This document shows positions 1-61,992 of a DNA stretch of 64,000 nucleotides, piece by piece (position 1 is the stretch's first letter; the number at the start of each line of letters is the position of its first letter). The stretch comes from Isoetes taiwanensis (Eukaryota > Streptophyta > Lycopodiopsida > Isoetales > Isoetaceae): assembly GCA_021234155.1 (NCBI GenBank), contig JAJEKV010000053.1:8199424-8263423 (forward strand), written 5' to 3'. The position numbers and the translations under genes are program-made. The notes under the pieces were generated by a model. That model was not told the origin of the DNA. It saw only the letters and a list, made by a program, of their open reading frames with translations, and did no database searches.

Positions 1-2673
1 TGCCCTGAGAAAACATTAACAAGAAAAGAAGGGCGAAAATCTTGAATATCACGCGTGGAGTAAACTCAAATCGAAGTTTAAACAACCATATTAGGTCAAA
101 TGTGCTAAAAAGAGCACATCTAAATAATCGATATTAAAGCATATAGTCCAAAGTAGCTTCATATTCCAGAAAAAACATAAACAAATATAAGTGTTATCAT
201 AGGACACAACATGTATTTCCTGTCAAGGCTATTGTTTCTAGCCAAAAAAGATAAGTATAACTCCTATCTCAGTGGTCAAACACCCCTTGGATAATAGGGT
301 ATGTCCAGCATAATGTTTAATTCAGTATGTTATCACACAGCAAAATCATAGTCTTGTAAAAGAACAATCATAGTTTCAACACTCAACTCTTTATGCCTCA
401 ATACTAACAAAAAGAATTGTGTTCACCGCTTTCAGATAAATATTCAGCAGCATAAATAGTGTAGACAAAGTTTGAAGAGAGACAAACTTAAAATTTTAAG
501 ATCATTTTGATTCACAAAGCAGACGAGTAAATAAGCAATTTAAAATAAGCAAGAACCTGAATTGTTTAGCCTCCGTGATTCTATGGATATTTTTTTGCGG
601 AGAGTCATTAGAGCCCCTCCTCAGTAAGATCGTACATTCTGTTCCAAATCCTTAGACTCAGCTTAGAGCTAGCTTAGAGCATAAACCCATCAGTAATCAG
701 CATTTTTGAGGCAAATAGGTGCCTATTTCATTTGCATATCGTGGCAGGCAACAAGTATTGTTGCCTCGTCGCTGGTGTCCCAAACATATCCAGAACCTGG
801 TCGATTTTGGTACAGGAAAATATAATATAACAGAGCTTGTCTCTTATGCATATTTCTAGAAAATTTTAAAGTGTAAACAGATGCTAACCTGTAGACATGT
901 AAAATCTTGTTGGGTGACTTCTAGTTTATAGCCCCCGGTCCGCAGAAAGCGAGCAGCAGCCGAGTGAATAAGACAAAGCGACCTAAAGAAGACAAAAACA
1001 CATTTTGACAAATCATCTAAAGAAGACAAAAAACACGGTTATTGATTCCGCCGGAAAAGCATGATTTCGTTATTTTTAAACAACAAAACCACCAATCAAC
1101 CCCAACAACCCGATCAATCCAAAATTGAGACTGTCATGTTTTACCGACGGACAAAATAGAAACTAGCCATCTTGTTTTTGCCTGGTTGGAGTCAAGCAAG
1201 CTAAATGTCATTTTGCTTGTCCATTCTGTGCCATAAAACTCAGCCACAGAGCTCAGACAAAATCGAATTCCCCTTTGTATCATGGTATCACCAATTTCGC
1301 CAAGATCAAACGGCCAAGAATCAGCTCTGTCTATTTTTTGTGTTATAGCAGGGGCTACAATCCGTCCCATTCCGGCCATGCTTTTTAAGCTGGATATGGC
1401 TTCAAAGGTCAAAGCTTGCCAAATCTGGCTATGTCATATCCGAAAACTTGGAGTTTGCTATCTGCCATTTAAAAGCGAACTAGCTGGCTCTGTGCAACAT
1501 CCGAAAATGGAATCGCCCGGTGTGTCTCTCGCAGACCGGCCAACACAGTCTTCAAAAATAGGGTTCGTAAGCCCTAAGACCATTTCCTTAAGTGAGCATA
1601 AAATTTTCCACAAGTCTAATATTCACAAACATTAATATTCGTATGAATGTAAAAAAACCTTTTATGGACCAACATTTTGGCAAGTCCATATCCCCCTTTC
1701 AAGATAAACGACGTCAAACCAACATGCAATAAAATCTTTTTTTAAAGTTTCATGCATCCCTTTTTCCTAAAGGGTTGCATGTGGCAAACATGCATGCTTT
1801 AAAGAATTCTTTTATAATAAAAGTCATGTAAGCATATGCTCATGATATTATGTAAAGGTCATACTATGAAACCAAATTGACCTTTAAGCATTTTATGCAA
1901 CCATATTGCACTCATAGTTTTTCTCTCCTCCCATATTGTGTAAGAGCAAAATCCCATACTAAAGTCGCAACACATTAGGTGGTGCCCAATTGTGGTAATT
2001 CATAAATTAAACCTATGTCTTTCCCTAGAAAGCCATGTTTATGATCTCCAACATTTTTACTAATGTGGCTACATGCACCGTCCATAAAACCTAAAGGGCA
2101 ATTGGCTTATAATAGCAAAGTATTTCCCCGTAACCAACCTTAGGGATGAAATACATATTTATTTTGCACTACCAAACAATAATAGATGTAGATGCAAAAA
2201 TAAACACCATAAATGGCATCAAGTCAAAGTTATGGGAAAGTGAGCTTTTCACTTATGTTCCCATTAAATGCTATAAGGCATGTCATAAGCCAATAAATAT
2301 GAAAAATAATTAAGAGTGTCATACCTATCATTCCAACCTTCATTGTATCATTTTGCATGTTAAATAGATAACCATGACAACCTTGGAATAAATCAAGGTC
2401 ACATTTGGACCACTTTCCTTTACTCCAATGAAGTATGAAACATTTGTAACCTTGGCCAAATTGAATCTAAGGTCAAATAGATCTTAGACATATTCTGCAA
2501 CCAAATTGCACTCAAAGTTTTAGTCTCTCATATTTTGTAAGAATATGAAAAAAGCCTATGCCTAGGCAGTGGCAATTGGCAACTTGCATAAGGAGCTTCC
2601 CATCGATGAAAAGTGGAGCTGGGGAGCTTCCCACTATTCTAGGCTATGAAAGTACAACCCTTAGACAGCCAAT
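1..2673. other. AT-rich intergenic DNA, no gene recognised
   Basis: Only short open frames without recognisable motifs occur here. Two stretches (about 1897-1960 and 2486-2555) are imperfect direct copies of each other, both built on 'GCAACCAnATTGCACTCA' followed by a pyrimidine-rich run and 'TTGTAAGA'. This suggests an old dispersed repeat. I see no splice-like gene structure, tRNA or rRNA. Confidence 0.6.
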
Positions 2674-2674
2674 T

Positions 2675-2743
<69 letters not shown>
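2674..2743. repeat. (TA)n microsatellite
   Basis: About 70 bp of almost pure TA dinucleotides with one TG interruption. It directly precedes the telomere-type repeats. A similar (TA)n also marks the far end of the same retroelement near 10380. Confidence 0.95.
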
Positions 2744-2745
<2 letters not shown>

Positions 2746-2746
<1 letters not shown>

Positions 2747-2803
2747 GGTTTAGGGTTTAGGGTTTGTTTACAACCCTAAACCCTAAACCCTAAACCCTAA
2801 ACC
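2746..2803. repeat. head-to-head interstitial telomere repeats
   Basis: About 2.9 copies of GGGTTTA (2746-2765) are followed by an 8-bp spacer and then 4.3 copies of CCCTAAA (2774-2803). The two arrays face each other, the orientation expected when two chromosome ends are joined, and they can fold into a hairpin of about 19 bp. The C-rich array runs straight into a 5'-truncated retroelement copy at 2804. The retroelement shares AACC with the last repeat, so the junction has microhomology. TTTAGGG is the usual plant telomere unit. Confidence 0.9.
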
Positions 2804-3222
2804 AATTATTCCCGGAATATGAGGCCACACTCCCTAGATGTAACTTTTTAAACTTGCATATTCAAGTTATTAATCAAGCAGAAGGTTTGTATGTTACGAC
2901 GAGGTTTGATAAGAGAAGATTGCTTCCGTTTAAGCATATTCAGTTTATACAATTAGCATCTAACAGGAAAATTAGCCAGTGCTACAACCTTGTGATTGCA
3001 CAAGTGATTATTTTATTATATTTATGTAATCGGCCTGAAGAATTTTTGGTGGAACTAGGGAGAACACTGGATGTGTTCGTGGCCAATGGTTTTTGCCTGC
3101 ATAGGCTTAAGACCATGGTTAGAAAAACTATTCAAAATGCTTGCACCCCTGGTGCACCGATGGAGAAACAACTTGAATATAAATATCGAATCATGGAGAA
3201 CATATGGCAAGTAGACAGGTAA
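2804..3222 (+). pseudogene. RT C-terminal fragment (truncated PLE copy)
   Basis: This encodes only the last part of the reverse transcriptase: the FLNLHIQ segment, the conserved 'RFDKR..LPFK' motif and a helical tail ending at 3222. Reading runs in the frame containing position 2854, whose first listed codon is TTG rather than ATG, so no independent start is implied. The rest of the RT is missing because the copy is 5'-truncated at the telomere junction. The sequence duplicates 8379-8797. Confidence 0.85.
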
Positions 3223-3418
3223 ATATTTGGAGCTTAACTCTTCTCCATAATTGTATGGTTTTCCCATATCCAAAGGATTATACTTAAGGATATCTTGTAG
3301 AAGAAGGATCTAGAGATTATTACCATTACTAATATGGGAACTTTTTCTTAAAAAAAAGGATGGAATTGGAATCGTAAAGGTTTATTGGAATTGGAAAAGC
3401 CAAAGAAAAGAAAAAAAC

Positions 3419-3453
3419 ATATAAAAGTGGTCGGGCCTGTACAGGCCGCGACC
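3419..3453 (+). promoter_or_regulatory. TATA box and downstream palindrome, PLE A promoter
   Basis: TATAAAAG lies at 3420-3427. It is followed at once by the perfect palindrome GGCCTGTACAGGCC (3434-3447), extended by GGTCG/CGACC arms with one bulged G. This is about 750 bp upstream of the ORF1 start codon and after the predicted end of the previous tandem copy, so it fits a core promoter for the full-length unit. The palindrome could be a dimeric factor site or an RNA hairpin at the transcript 5' end. Confidence 0.5.
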
Positions 3454-4179
3454 TGTGAGTTCCGGATCCACATGATCCGCCCAAACAGCTGATTAATCTG
3501 TGGGCATGGCCGGATTTGCCCTGTACATGGCCGATTTGCTCATATTTGCTCAATCTTGAGCAGTTGCAGGTGAAAAAAGGCTGTTACTTGTACTCTGGCT
3601 TTACGGATCAGTGAAGGATTCTGATACCCTGGGTTTCTATCAGAGCTGTAATAAGGTAGAATCTGAACATATGTTCATTGTCTATCTGAAATACTGGATT
3701 TAGATGCTTATATTGGATGTTGTATGCTACAGGGTAAAGCAAACCCACTGGGAAGGATTCGCCATATTTGATTGAATAAAAAAGCTTCTGTTCCGAAAGA
3801 CATTCTGATAGACTATAATCAGCATTGCTATAACGTAGAAATTTCGTTTTCAATCTATCTGTAGCTTGTGGTTGTCTGATTAAACTTGGATCACAGTTTC
3901 CTTCATGGAACAGTGCACAGTTAGATCATGGCAATACTGCCAGCATGGTGGTGATGGCTTTTTCATGACTGTCCATATTATTCTGAGGCATATTCGATTC
4001 CAAATCCAGCCGTCAAATAGGTAATTTTTAAGACCATTCAATATTTATTCCTTTCTACATTCTATCCTGGTTTACCCTTTTGAGGTTTATTTGTTCATAG
4101 CATATTGGCGGTTCTTCATGTTTAGTATACACTAAATAATGAGTAATTTGCCTTGCTAGAGCATAGAAATATCGTTGTA

Positions 4180-6588
4180 ATGTCGGAAGATGTGGGAGAA
4201 TCCAACTATATGGGGTTTGAAGAGGAGCCCGAAGCACAACTCAACGATAACCAGGTTGGAATGATGTATTTTGATCATGTTTTTTTGCCTCTTTAAGAAA
4301 TTTTCAATTAGTTCAAGGGCCTTATTATTTGTGCTTTATAATAAAAGAGGGAAATAGATTGTTGGTATTTTGGAAATTTGGGGCTATATGTGCATAATAT
4401 GATTAACTGTATGACATACGAGTATACATTTTATTTTCATTTTGTCTTAAATACTAGTATTGGGGAATTAGTAGTTATGTTGCATGCATGATCAAGGCTA
4501 GCTCATTACTTTCTTGATTCCTCGACACCGATAGCAAGGGGGGTTGTATAAAAAGCATTGACACCTGTCTTCCACATGCTGGCACCTGTACTAACACGTG
4601 TTCTGTCTTGTGACGGTGGCAGGTTAGCTTTTCCCACTTGGATTCGAGATTTTTTATGTGAATGACTAGACCGGAAATTCATCATGCAACAAAATATTGG
4701 TTATTATATGGGTTTTTTATCAATGCAAATTATAAATTCCTAGATTTATTGCATTTATCATGAGTATGGATCCCTTTAAGGGAAGGTTGCTTGTTAAAGC
4801 ATAATATATATATACATATTTATCTGACCTTAGAGGTTACCACCTGAATGCTTCATAAATAATATTATTATGAGCATTATCCATACATGATTTATGCATA
4901 TTTATCTAGGTCTTCATTTATTCTATAACTAATTTGATTGATTCTTTTTTTAGAATCCAAATGGTGAAGGAGATGGGATTCTCGTATGGAATGCTGACCT
5001 CAAGAAAATTGGTTATGATGAAAATCTTTGGGTGCCCAGTCCGATTATCCAAACTATTATGGTTATTATGATTGATGCTCCTGGATTGCATGAATACATC
5101 ATTAATAGGGAAAACTCCCTTACTGAACATGATTTCTCTATTTTAAGCAATTTGGATACTTCACACTGGTTCCAGTTGTTCCACACATATCGTAACGGTG
5201 GTAATGTACTTCAACATTTGAAGTCATTAGAAACCAAATTATTTGATATGGTGGAAAATGATAAAAGAGAGCTGGAAATGTGCAAACAGGTGCTTGAACA
5301 GTTTAAGGATATTAAACTTGCCAATGGTGAAGTATACCCTATGCTCAGGGCTGATGATAGGACTTCCAATATTGCGCCAGATGGGTCAAACCCAAAATTG
5401 AAAGGTATCAAATTGGATGATGAAGCTAATGCTATTTCTAAGGAATATGCAGAAGAACAGCTTCAAAAACAAAGCAATCCTCTTTTATTCTTTAAGAGGT
5501 TCCCTACCCCACTTGTGCCAAGACGGCTAGTTGAGCAATGGGCCAGTGAGAAGGACAACCAAATGTGGAAGCTCTATTCATTCAACCTACTTGCCCCAAT
5601 TCCCATTGAGGCTTATTGTTATCTTGGTGGAATAGAAGCTGATAAGTCGTCTTACGCAACTTGGATGGATAAATATGCAAAATTTGCTCACATGGGTACG
5701 GTGGTTTGTGATAGGAAGACTTCTATACAAAAGTTTTCTTTGGCTCTTTTTGATCCTTTCAAATGTGTAGAGGAGCCTATGATTGCTATGGTAAAAAAGG
5801 ACTTACCTACAGGTGGAAAAAGGGGGAATGACTATGAAACTAAGTGGCCTAATTGGAAAAGGCCTTACTGCCGTTGTCCACACCCCCAAAATCAGAATGC
5901 ACAGAATGCATGTAATGCAAAAGGAATCTTGTGGTTTGACCAAATATTATGGTATATGATGAATCATTTGGAAGCATTTTTCAAGGGAGATTCCATAGTC
6001 TCTACATGGAGTCAGTTCATTATATGGACCTCCAATCCTGGTATTGAGGCCTTGATCCAACAATGCTTGATTTTCCACTTCATTAGAAAATCTATGATGG
6101 AAGGACTCATGGAATATGTTAATAATCCAGAAGCTAAATTATTTGGGGACCGCAATGAAAATGGACTGAGGTATATTGAAAGGTTGATTAAACCTCCCAG
6201 ATTCTCTGATTTTAACACTCCTATGATGAAGAGACCAAGAGATCTGGAAGATGCCCCTCGTGCACCAGACAGAAGGAATAGGGGAAGAGGTAGAAATGAG
6301 AATAGAGGTGCACATCGGGGTGGTGGCAGAAATAATAGAGGAAGGGAGAGGTATGAGCAACCTTATAGAGGTGGCTATGTGGATAGAGCCCCCCCTATGC
6401 CAAGAGGTGGTAGACACCAATTTGGAAGAGGGGGGAGAGTGCCTAATGATGGAAGGAGAGCTGGGGCTAGTAGCACATCGGAAAGTGTGCAAATTGTTGA
6501 GAGTACCCCTACTTCAGTGGGCCAACAACAAGCCCAAACTTATTCACCTTTGAAGCCCAATAATCTGAACTATACTTGGGGCAATTAG
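4180..6588 (+). CDS. PLE A ORF1: spliced Cys-motif and RGG-tail protein
   Basis: Exon 1 (4180-4254) encodes a 25-residue acidic N-terminus and ends CAG|GT. Exon 2 begins after a TTTTTTAG acceptor at 4954 and runs to 6588. The intron is 699 nt and phase 0, and the product is about 569 aa. Exon 2 starts 26 codons before the first in-frame alternative start, and those codons align with the equivalent exon in PLE B (IGYD.. versus LGYGG..), which supports the splice. A Cys cluster CRCPHPQNQNAQNAC sits near residue 331, followed by a W-x-D-x-x-LWY motif also found in PLE B. Residues about 460-530 are RG/RGG-rich, as in RNA-binding proteins. A gag-like role in packaging element RNA is inference. I recognise no known family. 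Confidence 0.75.
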
Positions 6589-6668
6589 TCAAAACATGAC
6601 TTTGTTCGTCTACTTTTTCAAATAAAAAGGTTTATTCCTCTTTTTTAAGAGAATGTTTTCTTTACTTC

Positions 6669-8797
6669 ATGCAGGAAATAAATGCTGTTTCTAAATCTCT
6701 AGTACTATCTATGGGCAGATTCAAAATTATCAAAGATAAAACTAGTGATTCCTCTTACATACACTTATTGTATGTTAATAGGATTACGGAACTAGTTAAT
6801 GTGAAAAAATTATTTATCACTTGTTGCATGGATAACCTTGGTATTGAGGATCCAAATGTATTGGATACAATAGTATATGGTTGGAAATATCTTCCAAGTA
6901 TCAAAACCTCTTGGTATAAACCAAAAGATACGTTTTGCAATTTCTCATGCTTGAGTAATTTAAGTTGCTATTGTGAATACATAACATGGTTTGAACCATT
7001 CCTGGAAGTTGGGGAAGATGGTTGTAAACATGTTACAACACTCTCCATAGACATTTGTCATTTTACAAGGGATGATATAAAATATGGTTTAAACCATATC
7101 CATCTTAAGGAACCTAATACGGGCCTTGTTATTATGGAGATTCTTAAAGCATGGGAACAAACCATTCAATTTCTGGAATACCAATTTGGAGAATTCCATA
7201 CATCCAAGATTGATGATGCTAAAGCATTTATTAAAATGAAGATCAAACAATTGGTAAATGAGGCAAAAAGGGACAAAAGAAAAAGAATTAGGGTTCCTAA
7301 AAGGAACTACACGGTGGAATATAATATGGAAAAAGAATGGCTTAAAGAACATTTGTATATTTCTGGTGCAGATAAGGCAGAGAATACTCCTGTCTTTATT
7401 TGCAAAAATTATATTCGGAAAGAAGCCATTAGAAGAGTCCAAAGTACGGACTTTGCTATGTGTTATGATGAGGATGGTTACCCCAGTTCACCTATAGCAA
7501 TCAAGTATGCTTGTTTGTATAAAATGAAAGAGATTGCTAAGGTGAAAGTTGATAATAAACTAGGGTTACCCTATTTAATGGCAACATACAAAGTCCATAA
7601 AAAGAAATTCAGATGGTTGACTAATGCATCGTGTTGTATTTTTTCGGATATGGCTAGGTGTATAACTTCTGTTATACAAGCAATGGTCCCAATATTCAAA
7701 GAGATGTGTTGGACATTAGACTCTAAGATTAAAAGGTTTATGGGGGTGCATACTAGATCATTTTGGTGGATTGATTCCACTATAGACCTAGTGATTAATT
7801 TGCCCCAAAGAATAAGTAATACATGGGTTGCTGATATTACGCGATGTTATGAGTCTATACCTCTTTTTGGAGAAGATGGGATCACTACTATTTGTGAAAC
7901 ACTATTTTATAAGGCATTCCATCTGAAGCATCCTCTAAAGTTATGCGTTCACTATGGGGAAACAAAGTATAAAGTTTCATGGAGAAAGAATATTCCAAAA
8001 CTGGATTCTTACTTTGAACTTATACCCCAAGATCTCATTGCCATGAATAATTATTTACTTGCTAATTGTTGTATACAAGTGGGGGATAGAGTATGGAAAC
8101 AAATTAGAGGAATCCCTATGGGGTTCTCTTGTTCTCCTTTATGGTGTAACATGTATCTTATGTATTACGAATATAAATTTATAGGGAGACTGGCAAAACT
8201 GGGGAAAACGGAATTCCTGGCATTGTTTATAGGAAATTATAGATATATGGATGACTTGGGGGCAATAAATAATCCAATAATGGACCTATTTATTGATCCG
8301 TTACAACCAAGAGTTGTTGATAATCCGTTTTGGATCTATCCACTGGAGTTCCTAGATATTAAAAAGGAGATAGTAACCAATTATTCCCGGAATATGAGGC
8401 CACACTCCCTAGATGTAACTTTTTAAACTTGCATATTCAAGTTATTAATCAAGCAGAAGGTTTGTATGTTACGACGAGGTTTGATAAGAGAAGATTGCTT
8501 CCGTTTAAGCATATTCAGTTTATACAATTAGCATCTAACAGGAAAATTAGCCAGTGCTACAACCTTGTGATTGCACAAGTGATTATTTTATTATATTTAT
8601 GTAATCGGCCTGAAGAATTTTTGGTGGAACTAGGGAGAACACTGGATGTGTTCGTGGCCAATGGTTTTTGCCTGCATAGGCTTAAGACCATGGTTAGAAA
8701 AACTATTCAAAATGCTTGCACCCCTGGTGCACCGATGGAGAAACAACTTGAATATAAATATCGAATCATGGAGAACATATGGCAAGTAGACAGGTAA
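6669..8797 (+). CDS. PLE A ORF2: Penelope-like reverse transcriptase (one frameshift)
   Basis: The frame is open from ATG 6669 to a stop at 8426; ATG 6711 matches the start region of PLE B better. Motifs in order: 'YKVHK..FRWL.N' near residue 305, catalytic 'VADITRCYESIP' (Asp389), 'GIPMGFSCSP' (481-490), 'YRYMDDLGAIN' (Asp528/529), then 'INNP' and 'IYP.EFLDIK'. After the AAAAAGG run at 8361-8367 the homologous C-terminus ('FLNLHI', 'RFDKR..LPFK', 'VANGF') continues one frame back to 8797. A single-base loss in the A run is the likely cause. No GIY-YIG or other endonuclease domain is visible at either end. It would make cDNA of the element RNA, priming perhaps at exposed chromosome ends. Confidence 0.8.
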
Positions 8798-8994
8798 ATA
8801 TTTGGAGCTTAACTCTTCTCCATAATTGTATGGTTTTCCCATATCCAAAGGATTATACTTAAGGATATCTTGTAGAAGAAGGATCTAGAGATTATTACCA
8901 TTACTAATATGGGAACTTTTTCTTAAAAAAAAGGATGGAATTGGAATCGTAAAGGTTTATTGGAATTGGAAAAGCCAAAGAAAAGAAAAAAACA

Positions 8995-9028
8995 TATAAA
9001 AGTGGTCGGGCCTGTACAGGCCGCGACC
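8995..9028 (+). promoter_or_regulatory. duplicate TATA box and palindrome
   Basis: TATAAAAG (8995-9002) and the GGCCTGTACAGGCC palindrome (9009-9022) repeat the promoter at 3420-3453 exactly. A transcript from here would run out of the element into the (TA)n and element C. Confidence 0.5.
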
Positions 9029-9754
9029 TGTGAGTTCCGGATCCACATGATCCGCCCAAACAGCTGATTAATCTGTGGGCATGGCCGGATTTGCCCTGTA
9101 CATGGCCGATTTGCTCATATTTGCTCAATCTTGAGCAGTTGCAGGTGAAAAAAGGCTGTTACTTGTACTCTGGCTTTACGGATCAGTGAAGGATTCTGAT
9201 ACCCTGGGTTTCTATCAGAGCTGTAATAAGGTAGAATCTGAACATATGTTCATTGTCTATCTGAAATACTGGATTTAGATGCTTATATTGGATGTTGTAT
9301 GCTACAGGGTAAAGCAAACCCACTGGGAAGGATTCGCCATATTTGATTGAATAAAAAAGCACACGTTCCGAAAGACATTCTGATAGACTATAATCAGCAT
9401 TGCTATAACGTAGAAATTTCGTTTTCAATCTATCTGTAGCTTGTGGTTGTCTGATTAAACTTGGATCACAGTTTCCTTCATGGAACAGTGCACAGTTAGA
9501 TCATGGCAATACTGCCAGCATGGTGGTGATGGCTTTTTCATGACTGTCCATATTATTCTGAGGCATATTCGATTCCAAATCCAGCCGTCAAATAGGTAAT
9601 TTTTAAGACCATTCAATATTTATTCCTTTCTACATTCTATCCTGGTTTACCCTTTTGAGGTTTATTTGTTCATAGCATATTGGCGGTTCTTCATGTTTAG
9701 TATACACTAAATAATGAGTAATTTGCCTTGCTAGAGCATAGAAATATCGTTGTA

Positions 9755-9829
9755 ATGTCGGAAGATGTGGGAGAATCCAACTATATGGGGTTTGAAGAGG
9801 AGCCCGAAGCACAACTCAACGATAACCAA
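9755..9829 (+). pseudogene. orphan copy of ORF1 exon 1 with damaged splice donor
   Basis: The 25-codon exon 1 is repeated, but the donor CAG|GTTGG of the upstream copy reads CAAAGTTGG here, so correct splicing looks lost. No exon 2 follows before the element ends at about 10393. Confidence 0.7.
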
Positions 9830-10378
9830 AGTTGGAATGATGTATTTTGATCATGTTTTTTGCCTCTTTAAGAAATTTTCAATTAGTTCAAGGGCCTTAT
9901 TATTTGTGCTTTATAATAAAAGAGGGAAATAGATTGTTGGTATTTTGGAAATTTGGGGCTATATGTGCATAATATGATTAACTGTATGACATACGAGTAT
10001 ACATTTTATTTTCATTTTGTCTTAAATACTAGTATTGGGGAATTAGTAGTTATGTTGCATGCATGATCAAGGCTAGCTCATTACTTTCTTGATTCCTCGA
10101 CACCGATAGCAAGGGGGGTTGTATAAAAAGCATTGACACTGTCTTCCACATCTTGGCTTTTTGTACTAACACGTGTTCTGTCTTGTGACGGTGGCAGGTT
10201 AGCTTTTCCCACTTGGATTCGAGATTTTTTATGTGAATGACTAGACCGGAAATTCATCATGCAACAAAATATTGGTTATTATATGGGTTTTTTATCAATG
10301 CAAATTATAAATTCCTAGATTTATTGCATTTATCATGAGTATGGATCCCTTTAAGGGAAGGTTGCTTGTTAAAGCATA

Positions 10379-10410
<32 letters not shown>
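10379..10410. repeat. (TA)n microsatellite between two retroelements
   Basis: TA repeats separate the end of PLE A (+ strand) from the 3' end of element C (- strand). The two elements thus meet tail to tail at this tract. Confidence 0.9.
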
Positions 10411-10464
10411 CCTTCCTCCTACCGGAAGGCAAAGAAGATCCCAATACTGATAGCACAGAGACAG

Positions 10465-10494
10465 GAGGGTCCCTATGCTATCATAGGGACCCTC
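10465..10494 (-). other. perfect 13-bp hairpin at the RT stop codon
   Basis: GAGGGTCCCTATG and CATAGGGACCCTC are exact reverse complements separated by CTAT. The hairpin spans the stop codon and start of the 3' UTR of element C. It may be an RNA structure recognised by the reverse transcriptase, since a comparable 3' hairpin exists in PLE B. Confidence 0.8.
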
Positions 10495-11333
10495 TTGCCA
10501 ACTGCATTGTTTTTGCCAAAACCAAACATCCTGAATAACAGAATATTTATGTCATATCTTAAACCAGGGAAATCCTCCTCAGTTAGTACCTTACGCACCT
10601 TATGTACTAGATCTTTTTTTCTGAATCCTTTCTCCACAAATGCATTGATGAGCCCTGTCAAACTTTCAGCCGCCTTTAATGGATTAGAGTACACATACAA
10701 ATATGGTAATATCTGTGAAATAATGATGTTGCATGCCATAAGATAAGGTCTACAGCTGCATGCGTGCACAAATTTACTTGCCTTGAAGGGCAACTTATCC
10801 CTTTTATCAAATCGACATGTTTCATAAGAACCATACTGCGGAAACTTAATCGAAATACTCATATTAAGGAAATCAGCCTGTCTGCCATTATTCTTCAAAT
10901 TGTTGTCCCAATAAACTGTTTCATCCTTTACCACAAGATGTTCCAGGTCATAAATCAGTGGCTCCGAGCAATCATCACCCAACAGCCTTAAACACTTCCT
11001 GATCATAGGATTATTAATGGCTAACAAATCATCTATATACCTGAAGGTATGACTAAAATATTTGGCTTCTTGCAGCCTTCCAACCTGTATCATTTTGCAC
11101 ATGAACATCATCTCAAAATAAGCTAAATAAAGGTTACACCAGTTGGGACTACAAGCGAATCCCATCGGTATGCCCTTGGCTTGCTTCCAGACATTACTCC
11201 CCATAAGCAAATAACAATTACATAATAGCCATTTATTAAGTTTGACAAAGCACTCTTTGCCCATCAACACCCATTTACTGGTCACAACAGGTTTGCTATG
11301 TTTCCATTCCATGTTAATAGATCCATTTTCCAT
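10473..11333 (-). pseudogene. Penelope-like RT, C-terminal half (element C)
   Basis: This is 286 codons open without interruption. Motifs: 'VWKQAKGIPMGFACSP', 'FRYIDDLLAINNP', 'ADFLNMSI', 'RFDKRDKLPFKA', 'ACNIIISQILPY' and a C-terminal 'FVEKGFRKKDLV'. These align with ORF2 of PLEs A and B; the first catalytic Asp motif and all N-terminal sequence are missing. The protein ends 60 bp before the element terminus, leaving no room for an endonuclease. The first listed Met is probably internal to the original protein. Confidence 0.8.
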
Positions 11334-12561: not shown

Positions 12562-12897
12562 TGTTTGGATTCTTGGCATGCACCCTGCAGCAGCAGTCCA
12601 TGACTGCCGGATGCTACAAGGCTGCCATGCTCATGATCACAAAACAAGAACAAGACAAGAAAATATGTACAAAGAATGAAGGGGAACGTGGCCAAATGAG
12701 GCTCTCCAAATATGAGATCAAACCTGAGTACATCTGAAGAGGCTCTGGTCTAATATAGTGTAGACCGCAAATCTGAGCCGTACATCTAACTAAATCTAAT
12801 CCCTACACTTATGTTAACCTAATCATGCTACGTGTCAATCTGCCACCATTGACACCTAACATATGCATGCACAATGTTAACCACTAGGTGGTTAACA
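12562..12897 (-). repeat. G2 3' LTR
   Basis: A 336-bp LTR whose end contains the near-palindrome GTTAACCACTAGGTGGTTAAC. It is the 3' LTR because the adjacent CTGCCTCCCCCTAAAAAG (12898-12915) reads on the - strand as a polypurine tract. Confidence 0.92.
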
Positions 12898-14995: not shown

Positions 14996-15331
14996 TGTTT
15001 GGATTCTTGGCATGCACCCTGCAGCAGCAGTCCATGACTGCCGGATGCTACAAGGCTGCCATGCTCATGATCACAAAACAAGAACAAGACAAGAAAATAT
15101 GTACAAAGAATGAAGGGGAACGTGGCCAAATGAGGCTCTCCAAATATGAGATCAAACCTGAGTACATCTGAAGAGGCTCTGGTCTAATATAGTGTAGACC
15201 GCAAATCTGAGCCGTACATCTAACTAAATCTAATCCCTACACTTATGTTAACCTAATCATGCTACGTGTCAATCTGCCACCATTGACACCTAACATATGC
15301 ATGCACAATGTTAACCACTAGGTGGTTAACA
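14996..15331 (-). repeat. G2 5' LTR
   Basis: This copy matches the left LTR base for base as far as I can read and is followed by the second GGTAT target duplication. Lack of divergence points to recent insertion. Confidence 0.92.
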
Positions 15332-52300: not shown

Positions 52301-53135
52301 TCCTTTTAAAGTGGGATCGGACTATTTGGCAGAAGGTGTCTTCAGTTCTTCCTCCAATAGCACAAGTGGATGACCCCCTTCCTTGGGTAATTCATGAGCG
52401 TGTCAAAGCAGATAAGTTGGTGAATTCCATGTACAAAGTCTTGCTTGTTGCAGACGTCTTACCTTTTTCATCCAAGTGGCCTTTGGCCATTCCTAGGGAC
52501 TGGCAAAAGGCAGTATGGAAATGGTATCTGTTTTATAGTGGCAAGTCATTCATCGTTGTCTGCCTGTTGATATTCTGGTGCACAGATTTCGTCCAAAGGT
52601 ATCTGCACTTTGTCCCTTATGTGCACAGAGGGACGAGACAATTGAGCATTGCTTCTTCCTGTGTAGACATGTCAGGCATGCTTGGTTGTGGCTTCAAGGC
52701 CTCTTTCATTGCAATTTGAATAGCCAGCAGGTGTTATTAGCAGTCTATCTAAGTGGTTGAGAAAATTTGACAAAGAGGGCATTTCATTTGGCTTCTGCAT
52801 GGATCATCTGGTCCATTTGGAAAAGAAGGAATCTTCTCATATTCAAAGGTCTTGCTTGTTCAGATGCACAGGTCCTTCTTGATGCCCAACAACGAATTGT
52901 CAAAGCATTCAGGTGCTCATCAATTGCTAATGAGGTGAAGAGCCGTATTTGGGAGCACTATCTTCAGATTCACACTTACCCATGAGATTTTGCTTGCTCC
53001 TCATACTGTTTAGATGCTCTGTATTTGAGTGGGGAGGATTTGCTTTGGTAGACATTCTCTCACTGAGTTTTTAGTCCCCATTGTACTTTGTAACTTTCTC
53101 TGGATAATAATGGCTCAAGTCCATCAAAAAAAAAA
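49350..53135 (+). pseudogene. degenerate L1-type LINE F
   Basis: Pieces of one ORF2 are recognisable in order but in changing frames: 'LNTSYLKDEEF' (about 50050), 'GIDGIPIEFFHELWD' (50650), 'KLDFAKAYDSVDWAFLERCL' (51013 on), 'CPLAPLLFIVVAEVL', a mutated catalytic box YTDD (about 51332), 'LGIPVGV' (51540), 'LSMARRIVMAKSV', and a zf-RVT-like 'CPLCAQRDETIEHCFFLC' (52610). It ends in a poly(A) run at 53124-53135. Many stops and shifts make it inactive. The poly(A) abuts the end of PLE B, so F probably inserted into it. Confidence 0.85.
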
Positions 53136-54827
53136 ACCAGCCAAAACTAAATGCCTTTAGAATTGCATCTGCTTCGGTCAATCCCTAAGCAGTCTTATCA
53201 ATCCAGGCCTAGCCTTTGGCTTTGCCAGTCTGGTACTTAATGCCTTTGATCAATGTTTAGAACAATTACAATAGCAAATAATAGACTGGGAAACAATCCA
53301 AAGTATTAACTCGTCTAATAATAACCTGAACTTAAACATTTTGTCACTGGCCTTTACTTTTATGATCAGTTATCAAAGGGCTGGAATACACACCATTAGC
53401 CTAATGTTACTTTACATGTAGTACTCCACTGGATCCAAAAACGAGTCCTTGCTTCATATTAAATATTGACTATTTTACTCCCTTTAAAATGTTGAAGGAT
53501 ATTTTTAAGTCTGCCTTGTTGTTATTCAAATAATAAATTTCGTTCTGCTAGTACATAGTTCCAGCTGCATTTAAATCGATATTGATTACTCAAAGTGTTC
53601 TCCTTTCCTTTTTAATAAGGCTGCTCGTTTATAACTGTAAATCCATTTTACATTATTTGACATAAGCAGGATACGCTATGTTATTTCATACATCTATTAT
53701 TTTCTACCTCACAATCGTTTGCAACCAGATATACGTTTATACTCAGATAAATTTAGACCAGATAGTTATTTGGGCTATCAAATATGATGCAAATATCTTC
53801 ATATATTCAAAAACTAGCCTGTAGCTATTGAAGAACAGCACATGTTTATAATATACTGAAAATTGGAGAGTGATATACCTCGTATGATTATGTCTTAAGC
53901 AGCCAAAATTTTAAAGTATAAGGTTCATACCAGTGATGGTTCAATAAAACATTATAACAGTCAGCATGCTACTATATCAGCAGATTGTATAACCCATTAG
54001 GCGTCCTTTCAAAATTGATCTTCAAAGTTTTGTATTGTAGCACAGTTTCCCCAAAATCCCATTCGAACATTTGACTAAAAAGAGCAATGAGAAGAGAGAC
54101 GTTCGTACCTGCAGCCAACCAAGAATTTGTTAGCATGAAAATGGTTACAAATCCAGGGCCAGAAGGTACATAGAGTCTCTCGGTTTATCACCGGTCACTC
54201 ATTGCACCTTCTTAGCCTTATGTTTTAAAAGGAACAGAGGATTCAATCTATGCTAAAGATGGAGAATCATTTTTATTTTACTGTCCAGATACATCATTGT
54301 TAGTATTCATTCCGTAGAATGATTTGTATTCTAATAGACTTTAATAAACTGAAGATCCAGTCTTAGGGTGCACCCATTCTTATGCTGTGGTCACTAATTG
54401 CTTATCCACATCTGTCACTCAAATGTATCAGATATACAACTCAAGCCTGGTATTCAACGAACAATAATACTACTTGCTTAGATTTTTCAAAACATTAGAG
54501 AGAATATTGTTAATGTAGCAATGTTGCACCTGTTTTTCATTATACCATAACATTTTTAAACAAGTCCTGCCGTTAGTGCTAAGGTCCTCCATGTATACGA
54601 AATCGAAGCTTATCAGAAATTATCTGTTACTAGCAGTTTACATTATCAATCATAGGTAATCTAGAGATACGGTTACTGATATGTTAGAAACAAGCTTGTC
54701 TTACCGTCTTATATTTTGTAAAAACCTAGAAACACAACTATCAGCCTTGCTATTAGGTTTTACCATCCGCGTTCGTATCATCTAACTGTGAATATAATGT
54801 AGAACTTTTGGTTCCAGTTCGAAATAC
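53136..54827 (-). repeat. downstream pseudo-LTR of PLE B, intron part
   Basis: Intron sequence of an incomplete downstream unit, matching 59806-61540. It contains no gene. Its end at 53136 falls about 120 bp short of the ORF1 exon 2 position in the full copy. Confidence 0.8.
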
Positions 54828-55136
54828 CTGATAGTCTTCCTGGTCTGAGCAATACTCCTCATCTAGTTGTGTTTCAGGAATAGATGAGTTATGATCCATT
54901 GCAGTATAACAATCCCTGCCGGAATCACCAGTATAGCTTTTCTTGTTACTTTTGCCTGCTGCACTTTCACTTGCTCCACGTTTTGGGTTAACCATATCTA
55001 TATGATCATAAGCAAGCCCAGCCGCCTTATCGTTGACGCTCAAATAGCTCTGCACTTCTTTTTCCAGGATGATTTCATTTAGCTGTTCTTCAATATCACT
55101 ATTAGGTCTGCCATCGGAATCCTATTCCCACTCCAT
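54828..55136 (-). pseudogene. PLE B ORF1 exon 1, downstream copy
   Basis: It reads from ATG 55136 (MEWE, then a TAG codon, then DSDGRPNSDIEEQLNEIIL..) to the donor CAG|GTATTT at 54828/54827, 103 codons. It is acidic at the end ('LDEEYCSDQEDYQ'), like exon 1 of PLE A. The TAG is probably a mutated CAG. No exon 2 follows. Confidence 0.7.
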
Positions 55137-55625
55137 AGTTTTGGTGGGGGGAAAAAAAACCCAATATTAAAGACTATCTGTCTACTCTGACATCCAAAGC
55201 GTGTATTGGTCTTAGAATATGCTGGATTCATATTGATATTTTCACTGGACCTATAACCCCTAGTGTTTTACACGTATATCCGTTAATGCAAGTTAGTGAG
55301 ACTGAAGATCTCCTGCTCTAAATATTTGGGACAGTGCCATATGCAAATCTTCCTATCATTTTCATAGTGCCAGCTTCGGCTTAATAATCAGCATTGCCCT
55401 TAGCTGTTTTATGAAACCCTTATTATCATTGTATAAACATAGTTCAATGGTACACTATTGACTTTTCACGTTTATTTTATTGAGTACGTGTTCTTGATAA
55501 TACACCATATAAGGTATGTTAATAGCCAGTGTAAGAGTAGCTAGCGTGTTACAAAGGTAGTTCATTAGGTCAATCAGTAGTGGTAAACTCCATTAGCCAC
55601 ACATGTTTGTCTTGCATAAAAAAAA
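55137..55625 (-). other. PLE B 5' UTR of downstream partial unit
   Basis: Non-coding sequence between the terminal motif of the full unit and exon 1 of the next. It should hold the promoter by analogy with PLE A, but I see no convincing TATA box. Confidence 0.4.
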
Positions 55626-55726
55626 TCCTCCCTCCTACCGTAAGGTAGGGCTGGCCTATCTATTTACACACTGCAACAGTAAGGGTGGGTTGGCCCTTAC
55701 TTTGCAGTAAGGCCAACCCATCCTTA
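55626..55726 (-). other. PLE B 3' UTR hairpin and terminal motif
   Basis: A stem of about 20 bp (55680-55726: TAAGGGTGGGTTGGCCCTTAC against GTAAGGCCAACCCATCCTTA, one mismatch and one bulge) lies 100 bp after the RT stop. The motif CCTTACGGTAGGAGGGAGGA follows at 55645-55626 and nearly equals the 3' end of element C. Together they look like an RT recognition signal. Confidence 0.6.
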
Positions 55727-55823
55727 TATTTTAAATCAACCCATTTTTACTATTGAAATATATGTACTAAGAAATTGGAAATGACATACCATATTTGTCA
55801 TTCTAGAAAGTACTGTTGATCTC

Positions 55824-57819
55824 CTAAATCAGTGTGCACGTATCATATTTAAGTCCTGGAAATGCACCAGTCTTTATGTATTGTATCACTTTCCGTTTGA
55901 TCCCAAATTTATCAAATCCATTGTAACGAAATGTATTCATAATCTCAACGATATCTCTTGCTGCTCTGACCGGTTGAATTAATATACATGTAAGGCATAA
56001 TGGGAGATAATCACATTCCTGGCATTTTGATACGGTCTACAGCTATCAGCATGTATAAACTTTAAAGCCTTGAAAGGGAGTACATCTCGTTTGTCATACT
56101 TGAGTGTCTGAAAAATACCTAGAGTCTTATTGACCACGTCAATTGTCATGTTAAGGAAATTGGCCCTGAATCCATGCACTATATGATTATCCTTGTCCCT
56201 TATAACACTTGTCTCCTCCTTGATACCTAGTTTGTTCATATCATAGATTTGTAGATCAACTTGGCTACATTTGAACACATCACCAAGGAATGTTCTGATA
56301 ATGGGGCAGTTTATTGCCAATAAGTCATCCATGTACCTAAAGAGGTGCTTGAATAATTCAATGTCCTTATACCTCCCTTGAGCGGCTAAATTGTTAATGA
56401 AGCATAGTTCAAACCAGGCCAAATATAGATTGCACCAGTTTGGGCTACAGGAGAGACCCATTGGGATTCCACTTACTTGTTGCCATGTATTATTCCCCAT
56501 ACTTATGAAGCAGTGTAGTTATTGATTTTCACAAATTTAGCACAAGTTACAAGTGCCCAACATTTAGCTTGTGGTACATTTTTAAACCATTTGGCTAAGA
56601 ATTTCTCATCTTTATCTTTTTTGTACCACAGTTTATAGTGTGAATTCTTGCTGGTCATTAACTTCCAAGCGGCTTCACTTACTAATTCCATTATTCTACA
56701 TATGCCTGTATCACCTTCTAATGGAATATTCTCGTAACATCTCGTGATATCTGCCACAAATACTTCTGTAATTTTATCAGGTAAATTTAACACTACATCA
56801 TATATTGATCCAATCACCCAATTGGGGTTAACTTTTCTGGGTAGTATTGTGACCAGCTTGGCACTCATCATCCTGGCTATTTCAGGCCATATACTTAGGA
56901 TGTTATTGAGTACTGCTGTGACTATCAATGATATTTCAGAATAGATAGTGCCGTGTGCATTACTTATCCACTGGAAGTCATTCTTATGTGCTTTATATAT
57001 TCTGAGTAAATATGGTAATTTATCAGACTCAATCATGATATTTCCAATAATGCTGCCAATATCTTTTTGGATCGTAACCTTTATCTGTTCTGCTGTACAT
57101 CCAGTATTAGAGAAGTCTTTGCTATTGATCCTTACGTATGCAAGCTCCTTGATGTATTTTGGGCAAATGTATGCTGGGTTATTTACTGCCTTATCCACCC
57201 CGGATATATATAGGTTTTTATTCAACCAGTCTAGGTTGCTTGTAGCATTCGTGCCATTTAATATGAACCTTTGAGGTTTTCCCATTTTGATAGCCTCTGT
57301 TACTTGGTAACTGGCCTCCTTCATTATGCTTTCCTTAATAAACTGCTTGTCGATCTCGTTAATGTGTGGATATGTATAGAAATGTTGATCAAATATGGCA
57401 TCACAAACCTTGGAAATGTCTTCTTGAAAATCTTCCATAATCAACATTCTGTTTGGGATGTGATTGAGGCCTTTTTGGAAAATGCCTCTTAGTGCCTTAT
57501 TGTACACAATATTAGCATCCGTAGTAACTACATGTCCTACATTTTTATCAACAAACTTGTTGATATATGGCTTGCTGCAAGGGCAGATATTTTCCTTGTC
57601 AGCTGCAAATACTTGATAAGGCTTATAGCACAGGTCCCTAAGACTTTCGATATATCTCCAGCTGAACATTGTGTTGTTCATTATGTCAGCACCAATATCA
57701 TTGAGAACTTCAACAAATATTGCATTAAATATCTTGGGGAGACATATTTTGTCAAGGATCTTAGACAGGAAAGTGATGTGTACTATTTTCAGCTTATTTT
57801 TTTGAGTTACACTCTCCAT
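55824..57819 (-). pseudogene. PLE B ORF2: reverse transcriptase, two frameshifts
   Basis: Start ATG 57819 (MESVTQKN), which aligns with ATG 6711 of PLE A. Motifs: 'LPYLLRIYKAHKNDFQWISN', 'VFVADITRCYENIP' (first Asp), then a frame change near 56515, 'GIPMGLSCSP', 'FRYMDDLLAIN' (catalytic pair), 'ANFLNMTI', 'KYDKRDVLPFKA', and a second frame change near 55985 followed by 'GAFPGLKY' and the stop at 55824. The exon appears to begin at 57861 after a CAACACAG acceptor. No endonuclease domain is present. Confidence 0.8.
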
Positions 57820-57861
57820 ATGCCACCGTCCCAGCACATCTTTTGTGATCACCTTCTCGAT

Positions 57862-58155
57862 CTGTGTTGACAGCAAGAATAAGTATTAATTATATGACTA
57901 ACTTATCGTGTCCGATAAGTTTTATGAAGAGAACTTGCTTATAAGTCTCTTGCTGAATCAAGTTTCTGGGCCAAGTGGCATATTTGGTGCACTGCACCAT
58001 TTTCAGTCTTTTATTCCGAATGGTCGTAATAAGTTAACTTTTATTCTGATTTAAGGAACTACTAGGTCAGTCTTAACCATATTTTACTGCTACTGCAACC
58101 ATCGTACAGAAATAAAGTAATAAGGAGTTTAATAAATACATCAAAGTAAACATAC
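57862..58155 (-). other. intron between PLE B ORF1 and ORF2
   Basis: An ideal donor AAG|GTATGT lies 8 bp after the ORF1 stop, and an acceptor GTCAACACAG ends at 57862. Splicing would shorten the inter-ORF leader from about 345 to about 50 nt. PLE A has only an 80-bp spacer with a CATGCAG acceptor-like site at the same place. Confidence 0.5.
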
Positions 58156-58163
58156 CTTGTGAT

Positions 58164-59672
58164 TTAATAGTTGAGTTTCTGTCCCATATAGTCTTTACCC
58201 TTTGGTATCTTGTTGTTGGAGTCCTTAGTTACTGAATGTCCGATGTTTGAACTTGGTGTACCAATACCTTCAATGGAGATACTTTCAGATTGAACCAAAT
58301 CACCTCCGTGCGGATCCATTGTAATTCTGGGAGGTTGAGTGACCTTGCTCAGAGATGTACTTGCTGCTCGACTTTTTGTCATTCTGGTTTTTCTGTTAAA
58401 GTTTGAACCCTTGTTGCCCTGACTCTTAGTCATAAAGGAGGCATGTTTGATCATTTTCTCACATATATCTACCATTTTACATCTTATCCTATTCAGCTTG
58501 AAATCCCCCCATGGATCTGCTGCCAAGTCACTTACCATTTCAATCATTGTTTGCCTAATCTCTAGATATGAGATATAGGCCAAAATGCTTTTCTTTAGAG
58601 TAGTTTTGAGGCAATTTCTAAAGGCTACAAACTGTCCAGCCACAGAAATATTAGGATAAACCATATGTAAATTGTTCAGTACATACCAGAGTGCATGATC
58701 CAGCCAGGTCATGTTGTCTCTACATTTCTTATTTCTTCCTTGTGCTTCACAATAGCATTTGAAGTATGGGCACATTGTTCGCCAGATCCTTTTAAGATAG
58801 AAATCATCCCTGTCTATTGTGGGGTACGCCATATGCCCCTTTTGGCTAATATAGATAAAGTCATCCCTAGTACAAACCTTATCAAAGAACCTAGTGGTAA
58901 AGTTGAGCTTGACCTTGTCTTTTTTCACAAACTTCTCCATTTTTAAAGCAGATGCCTTGGCTGCGTCTATTTGCGCTGGTGTAATGTTGCCAAGTGTAAT
59001 CCAAGCATCCTGGCTGATGGGTGCCAATGCTCCAAAATTTTTTGTCCTCCATATACCCTGGTTACAAAGTATACCATGGCTTTCAACCAAACGTTCAGGT
59101 ATAATTGGGAAACGTGAACAGTTGCTAAGTGTAAAGCTAAAGCTTTCCTTGCTGCCATCATCAGTAACACCACGATTGGAGTTGAGTGTTTCCTTGTCTT
59201 TTTAAGAAAGACTATCTTGTACGTTTAACCAGTCTGCATCTCTGTTTTCATCATCATCTTGTGATTTTTTAATATCATTGGCTGTTTCAAGTGGACCTAT
59301 CCCAGAAAAGTAGAGACCTTTTCTTTGATCTTCCTCGGTTGTCCATGCGAAGATTTTACTTGGAATTTCAGCATATGCTTTGTTGACTATGCTTACTATT
59401 TCATCATAGTTGTCACCTGCTTTGTTGATTGCTGGTACTAGCTGAAGCCATTCACTGAATCCTAGATGCTCTATAATTGAGAATTCACCATCCTTTTTAG
59501 TGATTTCCTTTTCCAGTAAATATTCATGCACTTTGCCTTCTTTTATACAGCACATTAAGGTTTGTACCGCAGCATTTGGGACTTCAATTTTACTGCCTCC
59601 ATATCCAAGGGCTATCAGCTCATGGTTCCATGTGGGGGGTATGACCTCAAATTGATTATCATCATATTGCTT
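58164..59672 (-). pseudogene. PLE B ORF1 exon 2, one in-frame stop
   Basis: It starts after the TTTTACAG acceptor (exon base 59672) in phase 0 with exon 1. The intron 61540-59673 is 1868 nt. One TAA (59202-59204) interrupts an otherwise continuous frame. Shared with PLE A: 'LGYGG', 'FSEWLQLV', 'PERLVE', 'GALAPI', the Cys cluster 'CPYFKCYC..C' near 58750 and 'WLDHALWYVLNNL'. The tail is basic but not RGG-rich. I recognise no known family; a gag-like role is inferred. Confidence 0.7.
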
Positions 59673-59805
59673 CTGTAAAAGTAAGAAAACAGTGAGAACC
59701 ATCAAGATAAGTAGTTTGTATTTTAGTCTGCCAAGTAAAACCACAGTGTACCAAAGACATAAGCAACACCAGTTAAACTAGTGAATTGAAATGTCTAAAA
59801 AAAAC

Positions 59806-61789: not shown

Positions 61790-61992
61790 TTTTTTTTAAT
61801 TGAAGGCAGTGTATATTAAATATGTATAATAAAGGTACAAAAGGGAGCAATGAGAGCTCTTAACTTTTAGGAGGTAACCTTTAGGAAAGGGTAGGTTATT
61901 GACCCTGAAAAAACCAACTATCCCAAATCAAACAACAGTTAAAAGTTTATGGAAGTTGCAGGTGTAAACTGGTAGTAGTTAAAGCCGGAGGC

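What the first reader, a model, noticed from the sequence alone, without database searches (positions are those of the whole stretch)
2746..2803. Head-to-head telomere repeats joined to a 5'-truncated Penelope-like element
TTTAGGG-type repeats point right, CCCTAAA repeats point left, and the C-rich array is fused to the truncated 5' edge of a PLE with AACC microhomology. The element orientation is what endonuclease-deficient PLEs show when they attach to a chromosome end and are then re-capped by telomerase. The opposing array would fit a later end-to-end fusion. A second reading is repair of a break by telomerase. The arrays are short, so simple microsatellite origin cannot be excluded.
Basis: partly seen in the sequence, partly recalled or inferred. 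Interest (0 to 1): 0.82.

Follow-up and report, generated by a model that had tools for sequence, protein, structure and literature searches.

The report
Telomere-capped retroelement at a repaired break
A copy of a telomerase-related jumping gene sits in a break-prone TA repeat of a plant chromosome, and short telomere repeats facing each other at its broken end suggest the cell sealed an internal DNA break with telomere sequence rather than fusing two chromosomes.

Summary
At 2745-2803 three TTTAGGG-type units face 4.6 CCCTAAA units across a 6-base spacer. The C-rich array is fused, with AACC shared, to a 5'-truncated arm (2800-4823) of a tandem Penelope-like element (family A, 2800-10398). 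The genome matches the Isoetes taiwanensis assembly in size (inferred identity).

Terminal attachment plus fusion is not supported for the family. Of 9 5' edges judged independent, only this one carries telomere repeats; 0 of 17 examined 3' ends join a telomere array. The 3' ends carry a (TA)n-like tail, and 5 of the 9 sites have a TA tract near the 5' edge. Exact head-to-head pairs occur at three places in the genome. The other two have no detected element beside them and are flanked by 30-bp and 15-bp direct repeats; for one, all 40 scored relatives are uninterrupted.

Best reading: the element was copied into a broken (TA)n tract. Both broken ends, including its cDNA end (GGTT-3'), received TTTAGGG repeats, probably from telomerase, and were joined. 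The chemistry is known; the combination with a (TA)n-tailed Penelope-like element inside a chromosome is a new variant. Telomerase, event order and absence of a fusion at this locus are inferred.

The parts
1500..2650 (+). Left flank: part of dispersed repeat D (second copy 4151 bp upstream on the scaffold); the query ended at 2650, D's true end is not determined; the TA tract follows 25 bp on
   Evidence: genome search; sequence
2675..2743 (.). (TA)34.5 microsatellite at the left side of the insertion
2745..2765 (+). TTTAGGG-type array, 21 bases (3 units), pointing right
2766..2771 (.). Spacer GTTTAC between the two arrays
2772..2803 (+). CCCTAAA array, 4.6 perfect units; last 4 bases (AACC) shared with the element
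2800..4823 (+). 5'-truncated upstream arm of element A (equals 8375-10398 at 99.26%), pseudo-LTR-like
4824..10398 (+). Full unit of element A (5575 bp); the junction 10398|4824 recurs exactly in 8 other loci (L024, L027, L029, L031, L032, L033, L038, L042) and within a few bases in L020 and L023
4180..4254 (+). Predicted first exon of ORF1 (ATG, 25 codons), inside the upstream arm; predicted intron 4255-4953 (GT...AG)
   Evidence: read by eye; no RNA evidence; the scripted check used slightly wrong bounds and did not confirm the frame
4954..6588 (+). ORF1, rest (0 Pfam families at E<=0.1)
6600..8426 (+). Reverse transcriptase ORF, first part (weak RVT_1; YMDD read by eye)
8363..8797 (+). Reverse transcriptase ORF, C-terminal part in another frame (interrupted reading frame)
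10376..10410 (+). AT-rich 3' tail ending in (TA)n
10412..11332 (-). Right flank: 3' part of another PLE-like element (B), its 3' side against the TA tract; 97% copy at C1060:8188098-8189006

Best explanation
An internal break opened in a (TA)n microsatellite. On the right side the 3' end of the broken strand primed reverse transcription of family-A PLE RNA, whose 3' end is itself (UA)n-rich. The cDNA stopped inside the upstream arm of a tandem copy, exposing ...GGTT-3'. That end, in register with the telomere repeat, was extended with TTTAGGG repeats (read as CCCTAAA on the + strand). The 3' end of the left side, ending in (TA)n, was extended with TTTAGGG too. The two capped ends were then joined through a short filler. 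SHOWN: the arrays, the 4-nt register, the truncated tandem element, TA tracts on both sides, (TA)n-type tails in the family, and head-to-head insertions without a detected PLE, flanked by direct repeats, in the same genome. INFERRED: that telomerase made the repeats, the order of events, and that both flanks were one locus before the break.
For: Head-to-head arrays are rare and directional: exact search 3 places; relaxed search 4 places, one of which (C919) I read as a degenerate palindrome, against 1 tail-to-tail place, inside a locus full of similar short repeats. The two other exact cases lie between direct repeats: 30 bp at C974 and 15 bp at C1050. Control: direct repeats of 15 or more between 60-bp flanks at 176 of 20,000 random positions of fetched loci, 30 or more at 13 of 20,000. 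For C974 the joined flanks match 40 of 40 scored relatives across the join (40 of 4937 first-look candidates were scored). At the window locus GGTT of the cDNA end is in register with the repeat; in mammals 4 or more nt in register was seen at 17% of mouse and of rat loci against 0.39% or less expected and is read as pointing to telomerase (PMC2246262, passages). Family A: 17 3' ends examined (window included, two of them copies of one duplicated event); 15 have an AT tail of 14 nt or more, two have 7 and 11; none is next to a telomere array. TA runs of 10 or more within 60 bp of the 5' edge at 3 of 8 other edges judged independent (a fourth has 9; the remaining four have 0, 0, 0 and 6), against 332 of 20,000 random stretches; the window's own (TA)34.5 lies just beyond the arrays. 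TA tracts as break sites patched by captured DNA are proposed for plants, with empty sites in Oryza (PMC4241990, passages). EN-deficient PLEs are described as priming at deprotected telomeres or double-strand breaks (PMC3846280, passages).
Against: Only 1 of 9 family-A 5' edges has telomere repeats, so capping is not a habit of the family. No empty site was found for the window locus, and flanks D and B could have come together otherwise. A (TA)n target duplication cannot be told from a tail. C1050 is weaker than C974: no relative spans its join, its right flank (from about base 177 of the query) is a separate repeat in 38 of 41 rows, and the one relative of its left flank (C1083) stops at base 168, right at the insertion point, so there two different sequences may have been joined. 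The exact TA-tract-to-array join I searched for occurs only at the window, so there is no replicate. Four shared nucleotides also suit microhomology end joining.
Confidence: 0.52

Rival explanations
1. The head-to-head arrays were already in the (TA)n tract (an insertion like C974 and C1050) and element A was later joined to the C-rich array by AACC microhomology, or the arrays entered later at the element/TA border.
For: Head-to-head insertions without a detected PLE exist in this genome. Eight other family-A 5' edges lack telomere arrays.
Against: Needs two independent rare events within 60 bp; the array/element border shows no remnant between them.
Confidence: 0.2
2. A preformed telomeric fragment and the PLE cDNA were captured as filler DNA by end joining, without telomerase acting at the break.
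For: AACC microhomology and a filler-like spacer; complex rearrangements with head-to-head telomere stretches are reported in horse (PMC7215372, passages).
Against: At all three exact loci the repeats point away from each broken end, as telomerase would leave them; a single captured fragment would be expected to run through in one direction (inference).
Confidence: 0.14
3. Element A attached to a chromosome end, was capped by telomerase, and that end later fused with another capped end.
For: The array orientation is that of an end-to-end fusion; EN-deficient PLEs are known at chromosome ends, with telomeric repeats added to the truncated 5' end (PMC3846280, passages). At C1050 the two flanks may come from different sequences.
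Against: 0 of 17 family-A 3' ends join telomere arrays; 8 of 8 other edges judged independent lack them; TA tracts on both sides; both other exact head-to-head loci have flanking direct repeats and one has uninterrupted relatives; 8.2 Mb into a 10-Mb scaffold.
Confidence: 0.1
4. The arrays are an ordinary microsatellite or part of an unrelated dispersed repeat.
For: Of 34 array-bearing loci fetched, 28 belong to one dispersed repeat (15 of 20, 13 of 14).
Against: The window arrays lack that repeat's flanks, and the searched TA-tract-to-array join occurs nowhere else.
Confidence: 0.03

Closest known systems
Telomere-associated endonuclease-deficient PLEs (Athena; Coprina recalled; reported from Selaginella, section 7 of PMC12477314)
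   Same: No GIY-YIG nuclease found, truncated tandem copies, telomere repeats at a truncated 5' edge in the expected orientation.
   Different: Interstitial on a scaffold; the 3' end has a (TA)n-type tail instead of telomere repeats; telomere repeats at only 1 of 9 edges; no hammerhead match. PLEs are in any case said to prefer AT-rich targets (same section).
Short interstitial telomeric sequences made during break repair (primates, rodents, horse)
   Same: Few units, in-register nucleotides; for the sister loci flanking duplications and, for one, empty relatives.
   Different: Here head-to-head, and in one case combined with a retroelement insertion.
Human 2q13-type fusion of telomeres (PMC7215372, passage)
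   Same: Head-to-head arrays.
   Different: No evidence here that two chromosomes were involved.
Florendovirus capture in (TA)n tracts of plants (PMC4241990, passages)
   Same: Insertions in TA tracts thought to be break-prone.
   Different: Here a PLE, with telomere repeats at one junction.

Membership tests
Penelope-like element | Reverse transcriptase related to PLE/TERT | tested here: inconclusive
   RVT_1 below the gathering score (A E=0.046, B E=0.00094, C E=0.0069); no PDB sequence match for A at E<=1; structure model unusable, mean pLDDT 35.5. PLE-like motif order is recalled, not tested.
Penelope-like element | Partial tandem copies / pseudo-LTRs | tested here: met
   2800-4823 = 8375-10398; the same unit junction in other copies.
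Penelope-like element | Intron in the 5' region | not testable with these tools
   GT-AG intron 4255-4953 predicted by eye; no RNA.
EN-deficient telomere-associated PLE | No GIY-YIG endonuclease | tested here: met
   Three main ORFs: no endonuclease family at E<=0.1, RVT_1 the only match; no GIY...YIG-like string in six frames of 2800-10410.
EN-deficient telomere-associated PLE | Telomere repeats added at truncated 5' ends | tested here: inconclusive
   This copy yes; 0 of 8 other edges judged independent.
EN-deficient telomere-associated PLE | 3' end attached to telomere repeats | tested here: not met
   0 of 17 3' ends.
EN-deficient telomere-associated PLE | Position at chromosome ends | tested here: inconclusive
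   8.20 of 10.05 Mb on a scaffold; no chromosome map.
Athena terminon | Telomere-complementary 3' RNA tail next to a hammerhead ribozyme | tested here: not met
   Tail is (TA)n-like; no hammerhead among Rfam matches (at E<=1, 2800-10460, at E<=10).
Break-repair interstitial telomere sequence | Nucleotides in register at the break | tested here: met
   GGTT on the extended strand at the element side; the TA side cannot be judged.
Break-repair interstitial telomere sequence | Empty site without the repeats | tested here: inconclusive
   Met for C974, 40 of 40 scored; not found for C1050; none for the window locus.
Chromosome-fusion telomere site | Head-to-head arrays | tested here: met
Chromosome-fusion telomere site | Flanks on different ancestral chromosomes | not testable with these tools
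   The tool states that this genome has no relatives held.

The most novel reading that the evidence does not exclude
Family A is an endonuclease-less PLE whose RNA tail has shifted from telomere complementarity to (UA)n. It finds its primer at broken (TA)n tracts inside chromosomes, as bdelloid terminons find telomere ends, and telomerase can finish the 5' side. The window would be a fossil of telomerase and its retroelement relative acting at the same internal break.
Probability: 0.3. Interest if true: 0.72.

Novelty: new variant of a known kind. Interest (0 to 1): 0.5.

Why it matters
How retroelements without an endonuclease find a primer away from telomeres, and whether plant telomerase acts at internal breaks, are open questions as far as I know. 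This locus may join both in one readable scar, and the genome holds two relatives of it without a detected element. If the (TA)n tail is a targeting device, it shows how a telomere-attaching kind of element can be re-aimed at fragile sites.

Tried and rejected
Chromosome-end fusion as the default: set aside for the family on 3' and 5' edge evidence. Telomere arrays as a PLE hallmark in this genome: none of the 20 long array loci (L044-L063) and 9 shorter ones (L004-L012, some of them the same places, with C974 and C1050 among them) gave a tblastn match at E<=0.001 to the window's PLE proteins (no positive control was in that run); the 14 short loci (L065-L078) were read by eye and tested only for the dispersed repeat. 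All 34 array loci come from the first 100 of 689 listed places and lean to small contigs. Palindrome as a general break cause: C1050 lies at a 12-bp stem, stems of 10 or more being found in 35 of 3000 random 60-mers of the window, but C974 has only a 7-bp stem, stems of 7 or more being found in 253 of 3000, so this is not claimed. Structure prediction failed and no fold search was run. Dating by arm divergence (K2P 0.0055) was not used because the differences are clustered. Edge rows dropped: of 15 5' rows, L018 and L030 look like nested insertions and L040 and L043 continue upstream (judged), and L037 is cut; the 10 kept rows are 9 events, L035 and L036 being one duplicated event; L038 (87% identity) and L042 (poly-A at the edge) are less certain edges. 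Of 18 3' rows, L025 is 3'-truncated and was dropped. Searches scored 40 of 174 and 40 of 233 candidates. only waited.

Full report
WHAT IS THERE. Position 2675-2743 is a (TA)34.5 tract. After one G it runs into AGGGTTTAGGGTTTAGGGTTT (2745-2765), a 6-base spacer, and 4.6 perfect CCCTAAA units (2772-2803). The last four bases, AACC, are also the first four of a sequence that recurs 5575 bp downstream: 2800-4823 equals 8375-10398 at 99.26%.

THE ELEMENT. Between and including these arms lies a partial tandem: a 5'-truncated arm followed by one full unit. The full unit holds ORF1 (4954-6588, with a first exon at 4180-4254 and an intron predicted by eye) and a reverse transcriptase ORF (6600-8426, continued in another frame at 8363-8797). 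Pfam gives a sub-threshold RVT_1 match as its only match in the three ORFs, and no GIY-YIG-like string appears in six frames. I call it Penelope-like because of the tandem arms, the predicted intron and RT motifs recalled from memory. Sequence and structure tests were inconclusive.

THE GENOME. The window is G000:C1060:8199424-8263423; G000 has 1,658,258,908 bases in 1110 contigs. The Isoetes taiwanensis paper reports 1658.30 Mb in 204 scaffolds plus 909 contigs (PMC8566536, passages), three pieces more. The identity is inferred from that match.

OTHER COPIES. DNA searches gave 47 matches to the 3' region and 46 to the interior, with 40 of 174 and 40 of 233 candidates scored. I judged 9 5' edges independent and clear enough. 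Only the window edge has a telomere array; one other has a single hexamer 84 bp away. Of 17 3' ends examined (window included, two from one duplicated event), 15 have an AT-rich tail of 14 nt or more, most of them ATAATATATATATACATATATA-like, and two have 7 and 11; then flanks differ. Two have a single CCCTAA/TTAGGG hexamer within 300 bp and none has an array. TA runs of 10 or more lie within 60 bp of the 5' edge at 3 of the 8 other edges, with a fourth at 9 and four at 0 to 6, against 332 of 20,000 random stretches of the same loci. Family A therefore looks tied to (TA)n tracts, not to telomeres.

THE ARRAYS ELSEWHERE. The 21-mer (CCCTAAA)3 occurs 340 times forward and 349 times reverse, overlapping words counted. 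Of 34 array-bearing loci fetched from the first 100 listed places, 28 belong to one dispersed repeat with constant flanks. None of the 20 long loci gave a PLE match in the stretch held, about 3 kb each side in 19 and less in L063. Exact head-to-head pairs occur at C974, C1050 and the window. A relaxed pattern adds only C919, which I read as a degenerate palindrome, against one tail-to-tail place.

THE DECISIVE COMPARISON. C974 reads target-(TTTAGGG)n-filler-(CCCTAAA)n-target with a 30-bp exact direct repeat, and C1050 the same with 15 bp. The joined C974 flanks match 40 of 40 scored relatives across the join, so the C974 insertion is local and no chromosome fusion is needed. C1050 is weaker: no relative spans its join, its right flank is a separate repeat, and the only relative of its left flank stops at the insertion point. 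There only the 15-bp repeat speaks, and repeats of that length or more turn up at 176 of 20,000 random positions.

MECHANISM. On the strand that telomerase would extend, the element's cDNA ends in GGTT and continues as TAGGGTTTAGGG: four nucleotides in register. In mammals such register is read as pointing to telomerase at break-repair insertions (PMC2246262, passages), and direct target duplications as repair of staggered breaks (PMC7215372, passages). TA tracts are proposed in plants as break-prone places where foreign DNA is captured (PMC4241990, passages). I therefore favour an internal break in (TA)n, patched by PLE reverse transcription from one side, capped with telomere repeats on both sides, and joined. 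The enzyme and order are inferred.

LIMITS. The window locus itself has no empty relative. Its left flank is repeat D and its right flank the 3' part of another PLE-like element, B, of which a 97% copy lies 21.7 kb to the left on the same scaffold. Both lie next to TA tracts, so a target duplication cannot be recognised. The exact join searched for, (TA)5 within 10 bases of a 13-base telomere string, occurs only here. A fusion, or an older array to which the element was joined later, remains possible. Letters from the genome were limited, so several further 5' edges could not be read.

LITERATURE. Telomere capping of EN-deficient PLEs (PMC3846280, passages) and telomeric insertions at breaks (PMC2246262, PMC7215372, passages) are in print. 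Terminons attach to telomere overhangs helped by a complementary 3' RNA tail, and PLEs are said to prefer AT-rich targets (section 7 of PMC12477314), so a TA preference as such is not new. A search for Penelope with Isoetes gave two listings, unrelated by title. One for PLEs with TA-repeat terms gave 27 papers, of which 12 were listed; by title and start of abstract none is about a TA-tailed PLE. The original PLE telomere paper and the terminon paper were not held.

Noticed in passing
L044-L049, L051-L055, L058, L059, L061, L063, L066-L078: A dispersed repeat with a built-in telomere box, roughly ATGGTAGTAT-(CCCTAAA)n-TCCTAAATGG, accounts for 28 of 34 array loci fetched; several copies show TATATAAG and AATAAA strings downstream.
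   Followed up: partly
window 53128-61793 (-): A second PLE-like tandem (C) with about 2-kb arms at 95.65% identity; its 5' edge near 61793 has no telomere repeats.
   Followed up: partly
window 3786-4822 versus the right arm: The 11 substitutions and 4 gaps between the two arms of A sit mostly in tight clusters (e.g. 3786-3789, 4579-4588) instead of being scattered.
   Followed up: no
L016, L026, L041, L043 and 5' flanks L020, L025, L032: Several A copies sit in or beside the (TA)n core of a repeat whose arms look palindromic by eye (GTACAAA..CTTG-(TA)n-CAAG..TTTGTAC).
   Followed up: partly
L021 and window 10398-10430: Two different A copies abut the same kind of B-like 3' end, tail to tail across TA (by eye).
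   Followed up: no
window 12562-12897 and 14996-15331: A 336-bp direct repeat with 100% identity, like the terminal repeats of a recent element.
   Followed up: no
L011, C1050:11130077-11130114: The target of this head-to-head insertion, with the insert taken out, is a palindrome with a 12-bp stem and 6-base loop.
   Followed up: partly
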